A stretch of DNA of 64,000 bases from NCBI RefSeq assembly GCF_900104685.1, contig NZ_LT629755.1, forward strand, positions 372,001 to 436,000. Reading direction: 5' to 3'. The position numbers and the translations under genes are program-made. Source of the DNA: Agromyces flavus (lineage in GTDB: Bacteria > Actinomycetota > Actinomycetes > Actinomycetales > Microbacteriaceae). Below are positions 2,052 to 9,017 of the stretch, piece after piece (the first letter of the stretch is position 1; every line of letters starts with the position of its first letter). The notes under the pieces are model-generated. The model saw nothing but the letters and a program-made list of their open reading frames with translations, searched no databases and was not told the DNA's origin.

Positions 2052-3911
2052 TCAGGCCGGCACGACGGGCTGCGGCGCCGCCGCGGAGCCCGCCAGCGGC
2101 AGGGCCACTCGGAACGTCGCGCCGCCGCCGGGCGTCTCGACCACGTCGACGTGGCCGTTGTGGGCGGCGACGATCGACGAGACGATCGCGAGTCCGAGGC
2201 CCGAGCCGCCGGTCTCGCGCGTGCGCGAGGTGTCCGCGCGCCAGAAGCGCTGGAAGATCTTCTCCCTGATCTGGGCGGGCACGCCCTCGCCGTGGTCGAC
2301 GATCTCGAGCATGGCTCGCTCGGCGACGTCGTCGATCGACACGCGGATCTCGATCGGGCTGTCCTCGGGCGTGAAGCGCATCGCGTTGCCCATGAGGTTG
2401 GTGATCACCTGCCGGATCTTGTTCTCCTCGGCGAGCACCACGGCGCGCCGCACGGGCACCGTCGGCGGGTCTCCCGGCAGCGGGCCGGTCATCGCCGCGT
2501 CGTCGCCGCCGCCGACACCCGCGTTCGCATTCGCCGAGCGGCCGATCGCGGCGGCGGCGCGCGCCTCGGCGCGAGCCGCTCGCGTGCCGTTTGACGAGCC
2601 TCGCCCGCCGCGTCGTGCACGCGGTGTCGCGCCGCCCGCGACCGCGGCGTCGACGGCCGCGGGCGTCCGGCGACCCCGGAGTCGCGCCAGCGTGGCTCCG
2701 GCGAGCGCGATGGGCCCGGCCGTGCTGCGCGCCGGCGCCGCGTCGAGGTCGACCTCGACGTCGACGGGGACGACCTCGATCGAGTCGGTCCGCAGGTCCT
2801 CGGGCGCGATGACCGTCACCGTGCGGCCGGGGTTGGCCGCCATGGCGTCGAGCGCCGCGTCGCGGGCGAGCGGCACGAGGTCGACCTCGGCGAGGTCGAG
2901 GGGCTTCGCCTCATCGAGGCGCGCGAGCGCGAGCAGGTCCTCGACGAGGCCGCCCATCCGGATGGCCTCCTTCTCGATCCGGTCCATGGCCTGCGCCACG
3001 TCATCGGGGGACTGCAGGGCGCCCATGCGGTAGAGCTCGGCGTAGCCGCGCACCGAGACGAGCGGCGTGCGGAGCTCGTGCGAGGCATCCCCGACGAACC
3101 GGCGCATCTGGTCGATCGTGCGCGCGCGGTCGCGGAAGGCGCGGTCGATGCGGTTGAGCATCGTGTTGAGCGAGCGATTGAGGCGCCCGACCTCGGTGTT
3201 CGGCGTGGCGCCGCCGAGCCGCTGGCTGAAGTCGCCGTCGGCGATCGCCGCGGCCGTGCGCTCCACCTCGCGCAGCGGCATGAACGTCGAGGTGACCAGC
3301 ATGCGCGTGAGCAGCGCGCCCACGAGGACGACGCCCAGGCCGAAGCCGAGGAAGATCGTCAGGTACGCCGCGAGGAGCCGCTCGGTGTCCTGCGACGAGA
3401 TCGCGAGGATGATGGGCGCGAGACGGCCGCGCTCATCGGCCTCCATGAGTGCGTAGACGCCGCGGAAGGTGGGCTCCCCGTTGGCGTCCGACAGCGAGAA
3501 CACGCGGTAGTCGCCGCCGTTGTTCTGCCGGACGACGTCGGCCTGCGTGAGGTGCTCGGGCAGGTTCGGGTAGGTGGACCGATCGCGATTCGCCCAGTTG
3601 TGGCCGCGGAAGTCGCCCGTCTCGGGGTCGTACACCGCCACGAAGACGTCGTCGGAGGAGCTGAAGTCCAGGCCGCTGAGGTTGGCGTCGTCGTCGGGCT
3701 CGGCGCCGTCCTGCGTGAAGTACTTGTAGTAGTCGCCCGATGCGATCGCGCTGAGCTTCGATTCGAGTTGGCTCTCGACGTAGCTGCGCAGCATGGCCGC
3801 CGTGCCGATGCCGGACACGAGCAGGCCCAGCGTCAGCATGAGCACGGTGACGCCCGTGATCTTGGTCCGGAGCGAGATCCGGTTCCAGCGGTCGGCGAGG
3901 GTCTGGTGCAT
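2052..3911 (-). CDS. Membrane sensor histidine kinase (two-component system) with a long insert
   Basis: The 619-residue kinase is paired with the OmpR-type regulator encoded 41 nt upstream. In order it has a transmembrane helix (~20-40), an extracytoplasmic sensor region (~41-168), a second transmembrane helix (~180-205), a HAMP linker with a REVERTAAAIADGDFS segment, a HisKA domain with phospho-acceptor His278 in ASHELRTPL, and an HATPase domain with the N box (NKIRQVITNLMGNA), DHGEGVP and GLGLAIV. About 110 residues rich in Ala, Arg and Gly (~375-488) interrupt the start of the ATPase domain; normal kinases have nearly nothing there. A TAGACT box lies 9 nt before the ATG. The stimulus cannot be read from the sequence. 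Confidence 0.93.
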   Translation of the reverse strand: MHQTLADRWNRISLRTKITGVTVLMLTLGLLVSGIGTAAMLRSYVESQLESKLSAIASGDYYKYFTQDGAEPDDDANLSGLDFSSSDDVFVAVYDPETGDFRGHNWANRDRSTYPNLPEHLTQADVVRQNNGGDYRVFSLSDANGEPTFRGVYALMEADERGRLAPIILAISSQDTERLLAAYLTIFLGFGLGVVLVGALLTRMLVTSTFMPLREVERTAAAIADGDFSQRLGGATPNTEVGRLNRSLNTMLNRIDRAFRDRARTIDQMRRFVGDASHELRTPLVSVRGYAELYRMGALQSPDDVAQAMDRIEKEAIRMGGLVEDLLALARLDEAKPLDLAEVDLVPLARDAALDAMAANPGRTVTVIAPEDLRTDSIEVVPVDVEVDLDAAPARSTAGPIALAGATLARLRGRRTPAAVDAAVAGGATPRARRGGRGSSNGTRAARAEARAAAAIGRSANANAGVGGGDDAAMTGPLPGDPPTVPVRRAVVLAEENKIRQVITNLMGNAMRFTPEDSPIEIRVSIDDVAERAMLEIVDHGEGVPAQIREKIFQRFWRADTSRTRETGGSGLGLAIVSSIVAAHNGHVDVVETPGGGATFRVALPLAGSAAAPQPVVPA

Positions 3912-4704: not shown

Positions 4705-5376
4705 TCAGGCCCCCGCGATGCGGATGCAGCAGCGCCCCGCTCCGGGGTCCAGGTGCACGCGCGCGGGGTCGTCGCCGACGCCCGCCGCCATGCCGCAGAC
4801 GAGCGAGTGGTTGAGCGCGCAGACGACGTCCTGGTGCTCCTGCGCGAGCACGTGGAACGGGCAGACCCCCAGCACGACGTCGTCGCCCTCGGCGGTCGGC
4901 TCCATTCCCGCGCGCTCGAGCGCGTCGTCGAGATCGGCGGATGCCTCGGCCAGGCGTGCTCCCTCGCTGGCGGCGGCGGCCCGGAGTGCGGTCACGACCG
5001 CGTCGCGGGCCGGACGGGAGTCGGCGGTCGCGATGGCCTCGGCCATGATGCGGCCGGCGAGCTCGTATCGGCGCCGGGGCAGCTCGACGGAGAGATCGCC
5101 TGCCGCACGCCGGTAGAGCTTCGCCGGGCGGCCCTGACCCGGACCGGTGCGTGCGCCCAACCGCCGGGCCTCGACGTCGAGGAGGCCCTCGCCGGCCAGG
5201 CGCGTGAGGTGGAACGCGGCCGTGCTGCGAGGCACCTCGAGTGCGGCCGCCACGGCGTCGCGGCCGAGCGGCTCGGGGCTGCGAACCACGAGGTCGTAGA
5301 CGCGTCGGCGAAGCGGGTCGGCCAGTGCGGAGATCGCGCTGACGCGCCGTTCGAAGTCGCCTGCACTGGACGTCAT
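4705..5376 (-). CDS. HTH (ArsR/SufR-like) transcriptional regulator with a cysteine-rich C-terminal sensor domain
   Basis: The 223-residue protein has an N-terminal winged helix (~12-95; ALADPLRRRVYDLV, then the recognition region VPRSTAAFHLTRL). Its C-terminal domain carries five cysteines: C172 (in VCPFH), C186, C194 and the pair C216-C217 near the end. The layout resembles SufR-type repressors, which hold an Fe-S cluster through C-terminal cysteines, so a cluster or metal sensor is a reasonable inference, but cluster binding is not proven by sequence. The gene is divergent from folE with 84 nt between them. A TCAA-N6-TTGA palindrome overlapping the folE -35 box (5397-5410) is the obvious operator, so it probably controls the folE operon and perhaps itself. 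Confidence 0.85.
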   Translation of the reverse strand: MTSSAGDFERRVSAISALADPLRRRVYDLVVRSPEPLGRDAVAAALEVPRSTAAFHLTRLAGEGLLDVEARRLGARTGPGQGRPAKLYRRAAGDLSVELPRRRYELAGRIMAEAIATADSRPARDAVVTALRAAAASEGARLAEASADLDDALERAGMEPTAEGDDVVLGVCPFHVLAQEHQDVVCALNHSLVCGMAAGVGDDPARVHLDPGAGRCCIRIAGA

Positions 5377-5396
5377 CGGACACCCGCTCTCTAAAA

Positions 5397-5435
5397 TCAA
5401 TAACCCTTGACAAAAGAGTGGCACACGCCTAGCGT
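5397..5435 (+). promoter_or_regulatory. folE operon promoter with overlapping palindromic operator
   Basis: A -35 box TTGACA (5407-5412) and a -10 box TAGCGT (5430-5435) are separated by exactly 17 nt. The perfect inverted repeat TCAA-N6-TTGA (5397-5410) covers the -35 box, so a bound repressor would block RNA polymerase. The cyanobacterial SufR operator has the comparable CAAC-N6-GTTG form. The position between folE and the cysteine-rich HTH gene makes that regulator the likely ligand. Confidence 0.7.
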
Positions 5436-5460
5436 CGGGCACAAGGGAAGGGGGCGTGCG

Positions 5461-6114
5461 ATGACCTCGATCGAGCTCGTCGAGCCGGGTGCCGAGCGGC
5501 CGCGGCTCCACGCCGTCGAGGTCGCCGGCGGGTCCGAGACCGACCGTCCGCGGCCCGTCGACCGCGACCGCGCGGCGGCCGCCGTCGCCGACCTGCTCGA
5601 GGCGCTCGGTCGCGACATCCGCTCGCCGCATCTGGCCGACACGCCGCGCCGGGTCGCCGACGCGTTCGCCGAGATGCTCACGCCACGCCCGTTCGCCCCC
5701 ACCAGCTTCGCCAACGACGAGGGCTACGACGACCTCGTCGTGGTCGCCGGCATCCCGTTCGACTCGCTGTGCGAGCACCACCTTCTGCCGTTCAGCGGAG
5801 TCGCGCACGTGGGCTACGTTCCCGGCGATCGGCTGGTCGGGCTGTCGAAGCTCGCCCGCGTCGTCGAGCACTTCGCGCGCGACCTCCAGGTGCAGGAACG
5901 GCTCACCCGCCAGGTGGTCGGCTGGCTCGACGACGAGCTCGACCCGCGCGGCGTCGGAGTCGTGATCGAGGCCGAGCACCTGTGCATGTCGCTGCGCGGC
6001 GTGCAGGCGCGCGGCACGCGGACGGTGACCAGCGCCTACAGCGGAGTGGTCCACGACGATGCGCGCACTCGCGCCGAGTTCCTCGCGCGCTGTCGCGCGG
6101 GCGGCGCGGCCTGA
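5461..6114 (+). CDS. folE: GTP cyclohydrolase I
   Basis: The enzyme opens GTP to 7,8-dihydroneopterin triphosphate, the entry step to folate and other pterins. The 217-residue protein has zinc ligands C104 and H107 (in SLCEHHLLPF) and C175 (in EHLCMSLRG), with the same 3- and 71-residue spacing as in the E. coli enzyme. It also keeps the PGDRLVGLSKLARVV and QVQERLT segments. The ATG at 5461 is chosen because it follows a GGGAAGGGGG ribosome-binding site and a well-formed promoter; the in-frame upstream codons lie inside that promoter. It heads an operon with an FAD oxidoreductase, a FolP2-like protein and a RibD-like reductase, and not the usual ftsH-folE-folP-folB-folK order. Confidence 0.95.
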   Translation: MTSIELVEPGAERPRLHAVEVAGGSETDRPRPVDRDRAAAAVADLLEALGRDIRSPHLADTPRRVADAFAEMLTPRPFAPTSFANDEGYDDLVVVAGIPFDSLCEHHLLPFSGVAHVGYVPGDRLVGLSKLARVVEHFARDLQVQERLTRQVVGWLDDELDPRGVGVVIEAEHLCMSLRGVQARGTRTVTSAYSGVVHDDARTRAEFLARCRAGGAA

Positions 6115-6145
6115 GGTCGCGCCCGATCGGGAAGGGGTGGTTGCG

Positions 6146-7393
6146 ATGACGCAGACGGCGCGATCGCTGGTCATCATCGGTGGCGGACTCGCCGGGGCGC
6201 GGGCGGCCGAGGGGGTGCGCGAGGCCGGGTACGAAGGCCCGCTGGTGCTCGTAGGCGCCGAGGCGGTGCCGCCGTACATCCGTCCGCCGCTGTCCAAGGA
6301 GTTCCTGGCGGGCACGGACGACCGCGACGCGATCGACGTGCATCCGCGCGAGTGGTACGACGAGCATCGCGTGGAGCTGCGACTCGGCCGGCGCGCGGAG
6401 CGGCTCGATCCCCGGTCCCACCGGATCACGCTCGACGACGGGACCGGATTGCCGTACGAACGCGCGCTGCTCGCGACCGGCGCCGCGCCGAGACCGTTCG
6501 GTGGTCCGGGAGGCGACCTGGACGGCGTGCGCCTGCTGCGCACCGTCGACGATTCGATCGCACTCCGCGAGGCGCTCGAGCCGGGCGGTCGGCGCGTCGC
6601 GATCATCGGGGCCGGATGGATCGGGCTCGAGGTCGCCGCAGCGGCACGCGGCTACGGGAACGACGTGACGGTCATCGGGCTCGAGGCGGTCCCGCTCAAC
6701 GGCGCGATCGGCGACGACGCCGGCGAGGTCTTCGCGGCGCTGCACCGCGAGCACGGCGTCGACCTCCGCATGTCGACGAGCGTCGCCCGCATCGTCGGCG
6801 AGGAGGGGCGGGCGACGGGCATCGAGCTCGAGGGCGGCGACGTCGTCGCCGCCGACCTCGTGGTGGTCGGCATCGGCGCGATCCCGCGGACCGAGCTCGC
6901 CGAGGCCGCCGGCCTCGACGTCGGCCGGGGCGTCGTGGCCGATGCCGCGTTCCGCACGAGCGACCCCGACGTGCTCGCGGTCGGCGACGTCGCGAGCGTC
7001 TTCCTGCCCTTCCTCGGCACCCATCTCCGCACCGAGCATTGGGCCAACGCCGAGCACGCGGGCAAGGCCGCCGGGCGCTCGCTCGCGGGGGAGGCCGTCG
7101 AGTACGACGACATCCCGTACTTCTACACCGACCAGTACGATCTCGGCATGGAGTACTCCGGCTACGGACCGCTCGCGTCCGGTGTGGCGCCGATCTTCCG
7201 GGGCGACCGCGAGGGGCGGAAGTTCGTGGCGTTCTGGCTTCGCGACGAACGGGTCGTGGCCGGCATGAACGTGAACGTCTGGAAGGTGAACGACACGGTC
7301 CAGCAGCTGATCCGCTCGCGGGCCGTCGTGGATCCGGCGGCCCTCGCCGACCCCGCGGTACCGCTCGAGGCGCTCGCCGGCGTCGCCGGATGA
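6146..7393 (+). CDS. FAD-dependent NAD(P)H oxidoreductase, ferredoxin/rubredoxin reductase type
   Basis: The 415-residue flavoprotein has an N-terminal FAD-binding GGGLAG turn (~12-17), the YIRPPLSKEFL segment typical of ferredoxin reductases of oxygenase systems, an ATGAAPR motif, a second dinucleotide fold (IIGAGWIGLEVA, ~155) for NAD(P)H, and the AVGDVAS motif that contacts FAD. The C-terminal domain is of the reductase dimerisation type. It starts 32 nt after folE and overlaps folP2 (ATGA). In this operon it may supply electrons to a pterin-modifying step or to the cluster of the divergent regulator; both are inference. No ferredoxin gene is adjacent. Confidence 0.9.
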   Translation: MTQTARSLVIIGGGLAGARAAEGVREAGYEGPLVLVGAEAVPPYIRPPLSKEFLAGTDDRDAIDVHPREWYDEHRVELRLGRRAERLDPRSHRITLDDGTGLPYERALLATGAAPRPFGGPGGDLDGVRLLRTVDDSIALREALEPGGRRVAIIGAGWIGLEVAAAARGYGNDVTVIGLEAVPLNGAIGDDAGEVFAALHREHGVDLRMSTSVARIVGEEGRATGIELEGGDVVAADLVVVGIGAIPRTELAEAAGLDVGRGVVADAAFRTSDPDVLAVGDVASVFLPFLGTHLRTEHWANAEHAGKAAGRSLAGEAVEYDDIPYFYTDQYDLGMEYSGYGPLASGVAPIFRGDREGRKFVAFWLRDERVVAGMNVNVWKVNDTVQQLIRSRAVVDPAALADPAVPLEALAGVAG

Positions 7394-8289
7394 GCTCCGC
7401 CCCACCACCGCGCGCGCCGCGCCGCATCGGGCCGCGCACGTTCGACTTCTCGCGTCAGGTCGCCGTGATGGCCATCGTCAACCGCACGCCCGACTCGTTC
7501 TACGACCGGGGCGAGACCTTCGCACTCGACGCGGCCGTCGAGGCGGCGCACGCCGCGATCGAGGCCGGTGCCGACTGGATCGACATCGGCGGCGCGAAGT
7601 TCGCGCCCGGCCCGCCGATCCCCGTCGACGTTGAGGCCGACCGCGTGGTCCCCGTGGTCGCCGCGCTCGCCGGATCCGGCGCGGTCGTGTCGGTCGACAC
7701 GTTCCACCCCGAGGTCGCGCGGATGGCGATCCGGGCCGGCGCCCACGTGATCAACGACACCACCGGCATCCACGATCCCGCCATGGCCGATGTCGTGGCG
7801 GCGAGCGACGCGACGCTCGTCGTGACGCACAGCCTGGCCGAGCCGCGCACGGCCTTCCCGAACCCCGCGTACGGCGACGTGGTCGCCGAGGTCGCGGGCT
7901 TCCTGCGCGAGCGACTCGATGTCGCCCGCGCCCACGGCGTGCCCGACGAGCGACTCGTGATCGACCCCGGGCACGATCTCAACAAGAACACGCGGCACTC
8001 GCTCGAGCTCACCCGCCGGCTCGACGAGATCGCGGCGGTGGGTCCGCCGCTGCTCGTGGCGCTCTCGAACAAAGACTTCATCGGCGAGAGCCTCGGTCGT
8101 CGCGACCGCCGTGACCGCGTCGCGGGCTCGCTCGCGGCCGCCGTGTACTGCATCGGCAAGGGCGCGCGGATCCTGCGCGTGCACAACGTGCGCGAGACCG
8201 TCGACGCCGTCCGCATGGTCGAGGCGATCGAGGGATGGCGCGAGCCCGAGTTCCTCGAGCACAACATGCCGCCGGGGGGCGACGCATGA
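7390..8289 (+). CDS. folP2: Dihydropteroate synthase-like protein, FolP2 type
   Basis: This 299-residue TIM-barrel protein starts with MAIVNRTPDSFYDRG and continues with VSVDTFHPEVAR, HVINDTTG, VIDPGHDLNKNT and LVALSNKDFIG, a pattern matching mycobacterial FolP2 rather than FolP1. The phosphate/pterin loop that reads GGxSTRPG in true dihydropteroate synthases is GGAKFAPG here, so normal use of p-aminobenzoate is doubtful. M. leprae FolP2 is known to lack synthase activity. The gene overlaps both neighbours by 4 nt (ATGA), which implies coupled translation with the oxidoreductase and the RibD-like reductase. It probably works on the product of folE or a derivative, but the reaction is unknown. 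Confidence 0.88.
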   Translation: MSSAPPPRAPRRIGPRTFDFSRQVAVMAIVNRTPDSFYDRGETFALDAAVEAAHAAIEAGADWIDIGGAKFAPGPPIPVDVEADRVVPVVAALAGSGAVVSVDTFHPEVARMAIRAGAHVINDTTGIHDPAMADVVAASDATLVVTHSLAEPRTAFPNPAYGDVVAEVAGFLRERLDVARAHGVPDERLVIDPGHDLNKNTRHSLELTRRLDEIAAVGPPLLVALSNKDFIGESLGRRDRRDRVAGSLAAAVYCIGKGARILRVHNVRETVDAVRMVEAIEGWREPEFLEHNMPPGGDA

Positions 8290-9017
8290 GCGCGCCGTTC
8301 GACGCCGACCGCATGCACGCCGCGTACGCCGTCGACGTGGTCGACGCCGGCGGCAGGGCGGATGCCGCGTTCTGTCGCGTCAACATGGTCTCGAGCCTCG
8401 ACGGCGCGGCGACGCTCCGCGGGCGCAGCGGCACGCTCGGCGACGCGCAGGACCAACGGCTCATGTCGGTGCTGCGCTCGCACGCCGACGTCGTGCTCGT
8501 CGGGTCCGGCACGGTGTCCGCCGAGGGATACGGCGGAGCGGCCGTCCACGAGGCGGATGCCGCGTGGCGGGCGTCGCGCGGCCGGGACGCGCAGCCCCGG
8601 TTCGCGGTGGTGTCCTCGCGGCTCGAGCTCGAGCCGCGCCATCCGTTCTTCGCCGAGGCCGTGCGCCGGCCGCTCGTCGTGACGAGCGCCCGGGCGCCTC
8701 GCGGGCGACTCGAGGCGCTCGCCGAGGTCGCCGACGTCGTCGTGGCGGGCGCCGAGCGCGTCGACCTGCGCGTCGCGCTGGCCGAGCTCGCCGGGCGCGG
8801 GTTGCGCTCGGTGCTCTCCGAGGGCGGCCCCGGCCTGTTCGGTGCGCTCGCCGAGGCCGACCTCGTCGACGAGGTGTGCGTGACGCTGAGCCCCGTGCTC
8901 GTCGCGGGCGGAGCGTCGCGCATCGCGACCTCGTCACGCGAGGTGGAGCACCGCCTGCGCCTCGTCCACGCCATCCAGGGCGAGCGGATGCTGTTCCTGC
9001 GCTACGCGCGAGCGTGA
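8286..9017 (+). CDS. RibD C-terminal-domain / dihydrofolate-reductase-like pyrimidine or pterin reductase
   Basis: The 243-residue protein is a stand-alone RibD reductase domain. It has the RVNMVSSLDGAAT substrate segment, VVLVGSGTVSAEGYG for NADPH, LSEGGPGLFGALAEADLVDE, and the TLSPVLVAGG strand. M. tuberculosis Rv2671, of this same family, can act as a dihydrofolate reductase analogue. Placed after folE and folP2, with ATGA coupling to folP2, this gene is more likely a pterin reductase than a riboflavin enzyme; no riboflavin genes are near. It converges on the XPB helicase gene, with 31 nt between the stops and no clear terminator. Confidence 0.85.
   Translation: MSAPFDADRMHAAYAVDVVDAGGRADAAFCRVNMVSSLDGAATLRGRSGTLGDAQDQRLMSVLRSHADVVLVGSGTVSAEGYGGAAVHEADAAWRASRGRDAQPRFAVVSSRLELEPRHPFFAEAVRRPLVVTSARAPRGRLEALAEVADVVVAGAERVDLRVALAELAGRGLRSVLSEGGPGLFGALAEADLVDEVCVTLSPVLVAGGASRIATSSREVEHRLRLVHAIQGERMLFLRYARA

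What the first reader, a model, noticed from the sequence alone, without database searches (positions are those of the whole stretch)
4705..9017. Second pterin operon (FolE, FAD oxidoreductase, FolP2-like, RibD-like) under a cysteine-rich repressor
All four genes are tightly coupled with 4-nt overlaps except folE, and the divergent HTH regulator carries five C-terminal cysteines. The operator TCAA-N6-TTGA covers the -35 box. FolP2 has lost the STRPG loop (GGAKFAPG), so the pathway may make a pterin that is not folate. The RibD-like partner belongs to the family that replaces dihydrofolate reductase in mycobacteria. A redox- or Fe-S-controlled pterin pathway of this composition is, to my knowledge, not described.
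Basis: partly seen in the sequence, partly recalled or inferred. Interest (0 to 1): 0.75.

Follow-up and report, generated by a model that had tools for sequence, protein, structure and literature searches.

The report
Second pterin operon with own regulator
Besides its normal folate genes, this actinobacterium carries a second small operon whose enzymes look set to build and reduce a folate-like molecule that is probably not folate, next to its own cysteine-bearing control protein; it ties together two enzymes whose mycobacterial relatives have no settled task.

Summary
The operon is real: folE, FAD reductase, folP2 and ribD with a divergent HTH regulator (4705-9017). (1) FolP2 and the Rv2671-type RibD form a two-gene module: of 150 Microbacteriaceae genomes 79 have both, adjacent each time, one has FolP2 alone, none RibD alone. 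(2) The 93 FolP2 proteins compared, one mycobacterial included, keep the pterin pocket but lose the pABA side (no T-R-P loop in 93; SRKR becomes SNKD in 90), so a non-pABA acceptor is likely. The regulator family's site is TTCTAA-N17/18-TTAGAA; a divergent form lies at 5389-5418 over the -35 box. In one genome such a site precedes FAD-folP2-ribD although the regulator gene is 412 kb away. The regulator has four invariant C-terminal cysteines, not five; its sensor domain is predicted to resemble V4R/Bet3/H-NOX folds, so it may work like the archaeal redox repressor MsvR without being a sequence member. Product, acceptor, repression and signal are inferred. The main rival is an antifolate-tolerant second folate route.

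The parts
4705..5376 (-). Regulator (REG): ArsR-type winged HTH plus C-terminal domain with C172-x13-C186-x29-C216-C217
   Evidence: PF12840 E 7e-9; four Cys invariant in 38 sequences; spacing C-x13-C-x28..30-CC in 38 of 38; models pLDDT 91.9 and 92.7
5389..5418 (.). Proposed operator CTCTAA-N18-AAAGAG spanning the folE -35 box (TTGACA 5407-5412); right arm differs from the family consensus TTAGAA at three bases
   Evidence: Family motif TTCTAA-N17/18-TTAGAA in 22 of 60 REG upstream regions, the window not among them; the window's form, YTCTAA-N17/18-VAAGAR, in 11 of 13 folE promoters of this operon type. Pattern YTCTAA-N17/18-WWAGAR occurs once in the whole genome, here, reversed control 0, and CTCTAA-N18-AAAGAG once in the window with 0.01 expected; both patterns were written after seeing this site, so these two counts show rarity, not an independent hit
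5407..5435 (+). Likely folE promoter: TTGACA, then TAGCGT after 17 nt (by eye; the consensus scan found none)
   Evidence: TTGAC present in all 13 promoters laid together
5461..6114 (+). folE copy 2, GTP cyclohydrolase I
   Evidence: TIGR00063 188.9 bits against a cut-off of 181.6
6146..7393 (+). FAD/NAD(P)H oxidoreductase of ferredoxin-reductase type
   Evidence: Pyr_redox_2 E 4e-60 and Reductase_C E 1e-14; no NCBIfam model among the 25 shown reaches its cut-off
7390..8289 (+). folP2, Pterin_bind protein with the FolP2 signature NRTPDSFYD / GGAKFAPG / DPGHD / SNKD
   Evidence: PF00809 E 4e-67; best PDB match 2vp8, M. tuberculosis FolP2; signature counts; tree
8286..9017 (+). ribD-like reductase, Rv2671 type
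   Evidence: PF01872 E 1e-32; 4xrb E 1.1e-38; NCBIfam PRK14059.1-1 186.9 bits against a cut-off of 184

Best explanation
The operon is a switchable side branch of pterin metabolism. FolE raises dihydroneopterin triphosphate; the housekeeping FolB and FolK turn it into dihydropterin-CH2-OPP; FolP2 joins that to a nucleophile other than para-aminobenzoate; the Rv2671-type RibD reduces the product to the tetrahydro form; the FAD enzyme supplies or recovers electrons. REG, an HTH protein with a four-cysteine sensor domain, sits on the two-part site 5389-5418 over the -35 box and represses; oxidation, or loss of a metal or cluster, at C172/C186/C216/C217 releases it. Shown by sequence: gene make-up, FolP2-RibD pairing, loss of the pABA side with the pterin side kept, a conserved two-armed site in REG-linked promoters. 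Inferred: the acceptor, the reduced product, DNA binding and repression, the redox signal.
For: FolP2-RibD pairing: 79 both, 1 FolP2 only, 0 RibD only, 70 neither of 150 family genomes, adjacent and on one strand in 79 of 79; in 246 class genomes 174/17/18/37, or 161/30/12/43 with a stricter RibD cut (FolP2 there = best E below 1e-50, my cut). The pairing is also seen beside mycobacterial-type FolP2 in two other families: L145 (REG / folE-90aa-SDR-ribD-folP2) and L176 (REG / folP2-ribD). FolP2 residues: six of the seven pterin/diphosphate-side positions kept in all 93, the seventh (D103) D in 89 and E in 4; T-R-P of loop 2 in 0 of 93 against 9 of 9 FolP1; SNKD 90 of 93 against SRKR 9 of 9. Own full folate set and DHFR. 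Site: 22 of 60 REG upstream regions at gaps 17-18, at most 1 at every other gap from 0 to 40; 30 of 60 with either right-arm form. L215: site just upstream of FAD-folP2-ribD with the only REG match (a partial one, E 3.6e-25) 412 kb away; L213: sites before REG and before the folE operon. Literature: M. leprae folP2 does not complement an E. coli folP mutant (PMC1971073, passages); M. tuberculosis FolP2 is cited as predicted defective in dihydropteroate synthesis (PMC7809127, passages); Rv2671's DHFR activity is called quite low (PMC10812664, passages).
Against: FolP2 still scores above the DHPS model cut-off (TIGR01496 270.5 against 162.6). Deleting folP2 makes M. tuberculosis H37Ra, and as cited there M. 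smegmatis, more sulfamethoxazole-sensitive (PMC7809127, passages), which fits a folate role. 22 of 79 RibD-bearing family genomes show no PF00186 DHFR, so RibD might be their DHFR. In 22 of 80 FolP2 loci neither RibD nor FAD is adjacent, mostly Actinoplanes relatives. No acceptor-making gene is in the operon. 30 of 60 REG upstream regions show neither form of the site, and a relaxed site pattern is not enriched over its reversed control across whole family genomes. Redox sensing rests on conserved cysteines and a moderate fold match alone.
Confidence: 0.5

Rival explanations
1. Antifolate-tolerant second folate route: FolP2 is a dihydropteroate synthase with a changed pABA pocket that sulfonamide-like inhibitors do not fit, RibD a DHFR that antifolates do not hit, and FolE lifts flux. 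The product is ordinary tetrahydrofolate made under stress.
For: FolP2 above the DHPS cut-off; folP2 deletion raises sulfamethoxazole sensitivity (PMC7809127, passages); ribD over-expression gives para-aminosalicylate resistance (PMC10812664, passages); 22 of 79 RibD genomes lack a recognisable PF00186 DHFR.
Against: T-R-P of loop 2 absent in 93 of 93 and SRKR replaced by SNKD in 90 of 93; M. leprae folP2 does not complement an E. coli folP mutant; 57 of 79 RibD genomes also hold DHFR.
Confidence: 0.25
2. REG is a plain metal sensor (for example zinc) that swaps in a second folE when the first is short of its metal; FolP2 and RibD are carried along.
For: ArsR-type HTH, four invariant Cys; FolE is a zinc enzyme (recalled).
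Against: Both folE copies are of the FolE-I type (the housekeeping one matched by tblastn with the window copy); FolP2-RibD without FolE or REG is the commoner form (37 loci FAD-folP2-ribD or folP2-ribD, 14 with FolE, of 80).
Confidence: 0.1
3. Light or photo-oxidative stress cassette: the extra pterin is a photolyase/cryptochrome antenna or a quencher, as in the light-induced folM-folE-folX and SDR/FAD genes of Pseudomonas mendocina.
For: Similar gene mix under a light regulator (PMC9758184, passages).
Against: No photolyase recognised by eye among the gene clusters recurring near REG in 60 loci (no photolyase model was run); the regulator is not of the LitR type; FolP2 and RibD have no place in that cassette.
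Confidence: 0.08

Closest known systems
Mycobacterial FolP2 (Rv1207; PDB 2vp8)
   Same: Best PDB match; same signature NRTPDSFYD, GGxK..PG, DPxHD, SNKD; on the FolP2 side of a 100/100 split from FolP1
   Different: Class-level relatives of that type are about 43-51% identical to the window protein and form their own group (98/100); here folP2 is in an operon with ribD
Rv2671 (mycobacterial RibD, weak DHFR analogue; PDB 4xrb)
   Same: Best PDB match over residues 26-242 of 243, 37% identity
   Different: Here paired with folP2 and behind a REG-linked promoter
Dihydropteroate synthase FolP1
   Same: Same family, pterin and diphosphate residues kept
   Different: T-R-P loop and SRKR replaced in all or nearly all FolP2
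MsvR, methanogen HTH + V4R redox repressor
   Same: HTH plus a C-terminal cysteine domain of V4R-like predicted fold; promoter with inverted-repeat boxes starting TTC (PMC3729527, passages)
   Different: No V4R (PF02830) match for 38 members; four invariant Cys against three conserved in MsvR; site TTCTAA-N17/18-TTAGAA instead of TTCGTA-N4-TACGAA
SufR (HTH + Fe-S sensor)
   Same: HTH plus C-terminal cysteines (SufR side recalled)
   Different: No TIGR02702 match for the window protein at E 1e-3; a paralogue beside a ferredoxin gene matches it only over the HTH, far below the cut-off
Light-induced folM-folE-folX set of Pseudomonas mendocina
   Same: Regulated extra pterin genes with SDR and FAD enzymes
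   Different: FolM and FolX instead of FolP2 and RibD; LitR regulator

Membership tests
Dihydropteroate synthase | Family model score | tested here: met
   TIGR01496 270.5 bits, cut-off 162.6
Dihydropteroate synthase | Pterin/diphosphate residues (N31, D103, N122, D192, K228, R263, H265; roles recalled) | tested here: met
   All seven in the window protein; D103 is E in 4 of 93, the others kept in 93 of 93
Dihydropteroate synthase | pABA side: STRPG loop 2 and SRK[SR] (role recalled) | tested here: not met
   T-R-P 0 of 93; SNKD 90 of 93
Dihydropteroate synthase | Makes dihydropteroate from pABA | not testable with these tools
   Needs enzyme assay
FolP2 (mycobacterial type, wide sense) | Signature motifs and the same side of the split from FolP1 | tested here: met
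   split 100/100. The window type itself is not resolved as one clade (two changes; one clade in 73% of bootstraps)
Rv2671-type RibD | Closest solved structure and family model | tested here: met
   4xrb E 1.1e-38; PRK14059.1-1 186.9 against 184, but below the cut-offs of PRK14059.1-2 (193.5 of 226) and .1-4 (159.3 of 274)
Rv2671-type RibD | Reduces dihydrofolate | not testable with these tools
   Needs enzyme assay
GTP cyclohydrolase I | Family model score | tested here: met
   TIGR00063 188.9 against 181.6
MsvR | ArsR-type HTH | tested here: met
MsvR | V4R domain by sequence model | tested here: not met
   PF02830 not among the 12 families matched by any of 38 members at E 1
MsvR | V4R-like fold | tested here: inconclusive
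MsvR | Redox-dependent DNA binding | not testable with these tools
   Needs gel shifts
SufR | Family model TIGR02702 | tested here: not met
   Not among matches at E 1e-3 for the window regulator
SufR | Binds an Fe-S cluster | not testable with these tools
   Needs spectroscopy

The most novel reading that the evidence does not exclude
Actinobacteria widely hold a second pteroate-like cofactor: FolP2 conjugates dihydropterin to an unknown non-benzoate amine or other nucleophile and the Rv2671-type RibD is its dedicated reductase. The orphan mycobacterial enzymes FolP2 and Rv2671 would be two steps of this one pathway, and in some lineages a V4R-like cysteine-sensor repressor turns it on with folE when the cell's redox or metal state shifts.
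Probability: 0.35. Interest if true: 0.9.

Novelty: new variant of a known kind. Interest (0 to 1): 0.62.

Why it matters
FolP2 and Rv2671 have each been studied as odd folate enzymes and neither has a settled task in the papers I saw. Linking them as a pair, with a signature that points away from pABA, gives a concrete test of what they make and would change how antifolate resistance in actinobacteria is read. The regulator family with its site gives a ready reporter and a list of likely co-regulated genes (folE, FAD reductase, DoxX-like, transaldolase).

Tried and rejected

Rows dropped and biases: 9 of 80 named FolP2 loci (L027, L030, L048, L057, L087, L088, L091, L092, L095) were left out because the aligned piece was short or broken; the tree used 45 of 102 rows. 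The regulator alignment used the window and 37 of the 52 other REG proteins listed. The 60 REG loci are a biased set: 10 (window and nine loci) were picked because FolP2 is beside REG, nine (L126-L134) because it is not, and L145 because RibD and FolP2 are adjacent; of the 12 loci with FolP2 near REG only L176 came without such a choice. No tree-corrected test of the FolP2-RibD pairing was made. The gene caller is a home-made codon-bias script; some genes were missed or misframed.

Full report
Observation. Pfam and NCBIfam call them HTH_20, GTP cyclohydrolase I, Pyr_redox_2 + Reductase_C, Pterin_bind and RibD_C. FAD/folP2 and folP2/ribD overlap by four bases; folE ends 31 nt before the FAD gene. 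The window is part of one 3.69-Mb contig; the closest named FolP2 loci are from Agromyces. The genome holds a second folate locus (L135: FtsH, FolE, FolP, FolB, FolK, named from the translations; FolE 39% and FolP 37% identical to the window copies) and a DHFR gene. It has 14 matches to RibD_C, the window's included, so the window RibD is not the only such reductase.

Pairing. In an even sample of 150 genomes of the family, FolP2 (E below 1e-80) was found in 80 and RibD in 79; 79 genomes have both, one has FolP2 only, 70 neither, and in 79 of 79 the two are adjacent on one strand, RibD downstream in 78. The genomes are related and no tree-corrected test was made. Among 80 named loci: folP2 alone 22, FAD-folP2-ribD 20, folP2-ribD 17, REG/folE-FAD-folP2-ribD 11, folP2 with opposing ribD 4, ribD-folP2 2, folE-folP2-ribD 2, REG/folE-folP2-ribD 1, FAD-folP2 1. 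The query for these was FolP2, and they are the best 80 of at least 565. In 246 genomes of the class, FolP2 of either type (best E below 1e-50, my cut) and RibD (E up to 1e-15) go together in 174, apart in 17 and 18, both absent in 37; here relatedness may explain much. Two distant loci repeat the link with mycobacterial-type FolP2: L145 (folE-90aa-SDR-ribD-folP2 with REG beside) and L176 (REG beside folP2-ribD).

FolP2. Its best PDB match is M. tuberculosis FolP2, 2vp8. A tree of 45 proteins splits FolP1 from FolP2 at 100/100; the mycobacterial-type group is 98/100; the window type is not resolved as one clade. In 72 window-type, 5 further, 15 mycobacterial-type and 1 M. tuberculosis sequence, the residues that hold pterin and diphosphate are kept (D103 is E in 4), while T-R-P of the pABA loop is absent in 93 of 93, SRKR of FolP1 is SNKD in 90 of 93, and the FolP1 position L/I/F is H in 90 of 93. 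That these positions face pABA in DHPS is recalled from published structures, not measured here. A basic-to-acid change where the benzoate carboxylate should lie argues against pABA as partner. In print: folP2 of M. leprae does not complement an E. coli folP mutant and was thought to serve another pathway (PMC1971073, passages); M. tuberculosis FolP2 is cited as predicted defective in dihydropteroate synthesis, yet deletion of folP2 makes H37Ra more sensitive to sulfamethoxazole (PMC7809127, passages). For Rv2671, DHFR activity is described as quite low (PMC10812664, passages).

Regulator and site. The regulator occurs in 22 of 150 family genomes, all 22 with FolP2; 14 of its 23 copies lie within 3 kb of FolP2. 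Other copies stand near folE, FAD, DoxX-like (below Pfam's cut-off) or transaldolase genes. The upstream regions of 60 REG loci show TTCTAA...TTAGAA (one mismatch per arm) at gap 18 in 18 loci and at gap 17 in 4, and in at most one locus at any other gap from 0 to 40. The window is not among these 22: its right arm has three mismatches. Its form, YTCTAA-N17/18-VAAGAR, is kept in 11 of the 13 folE promoters of this operon type; the other two (L071, L101) have the TTCTAA/TTTAGA repeat further down, at the -10 box. Either form is present in 30 of the 60 upstream regions. YTCTAA-N17/18-WWAGAR is met once in the own genome, at 5389-5418; the pattern was written with that site in view. Two cases test the link apart from divergence: L213 (G016) has sites before REG and before folE-FAD-folP2-ribD although REG is at the far end; L215 (G049) has one just upstream of FAD-folP2-ribD with the only REG match, a partial one, 412 kb off. 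A wider pattern over 150 genomes is not specific.

Mechanism and doubt. I think most likely a repressible side pathway that makes a tetrahydropterin conjugate other than folate (0.5). The main rival is a drug-tolerant second folate route (0.25). Nothing here shows the acceptor, the product, repression or the signal. Searches of the open-licence PMC library found no paper holding both Rv2671 and FolP2, and none of the papers listed for FolP2 with dihydropteroate synthase and mycobacterium (13), FolP2 with pterin (3) or three of FolP2, RibD, pterin, operon and actinobacteria (12 of 77) describes this operon by title or abstract start; subscription papers and preprints were not searched.

Noticed in passing
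L163:3047-3742 and L174:9978-10733: Paralogues of the regulator stand directly beside a ferredoxin gene (4Fe-4S model matched for the L174 copy) in two genomes, hinting that the wider family is tied to Fe-S or electron-transfer genes.
   Followed up: partly
L126, L128, L130, L132, L151: A transaldolase gene sits with REG and folE; transaldolase-family proteins were once predicted to replace FolB (PMC1971073, passage), so it could be a pterin aldolase.
   Followed up: partly
L155, L160, L164, L165, L167, L171, L173, L175, L177-L180: A second REG subgroup lies next to a gene of about 171 aa (labelled DUF3291 by me from memory, not checked) in 12 of 60 loci; only L179 and L180 of these show the TTCTAA site. 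It probably has another task.
   Followed up: no
window 2052-3911 (-): The histidine kinase (named by eye) next to the operon carries an Ala/Arg-rich stretch between its kinase parts that looks like a low-complexity insert.
   Followed up: no
G016:C1:1921468-1921496 (L214) and G125:C29:59887-59915 (L216): Further copies of the regulator site in stretches where none of the operon's five genes or the DoxX-like gene was found; possible extra targets or chance.
   Followed up: partly
family sample: 50 of 150 Microbacteriaceae genomes have neither a PF00186 DHFR match nor the Rv2671-type RibD; how they reduce dihydrofolate is not clear from this.
   Followed up: no
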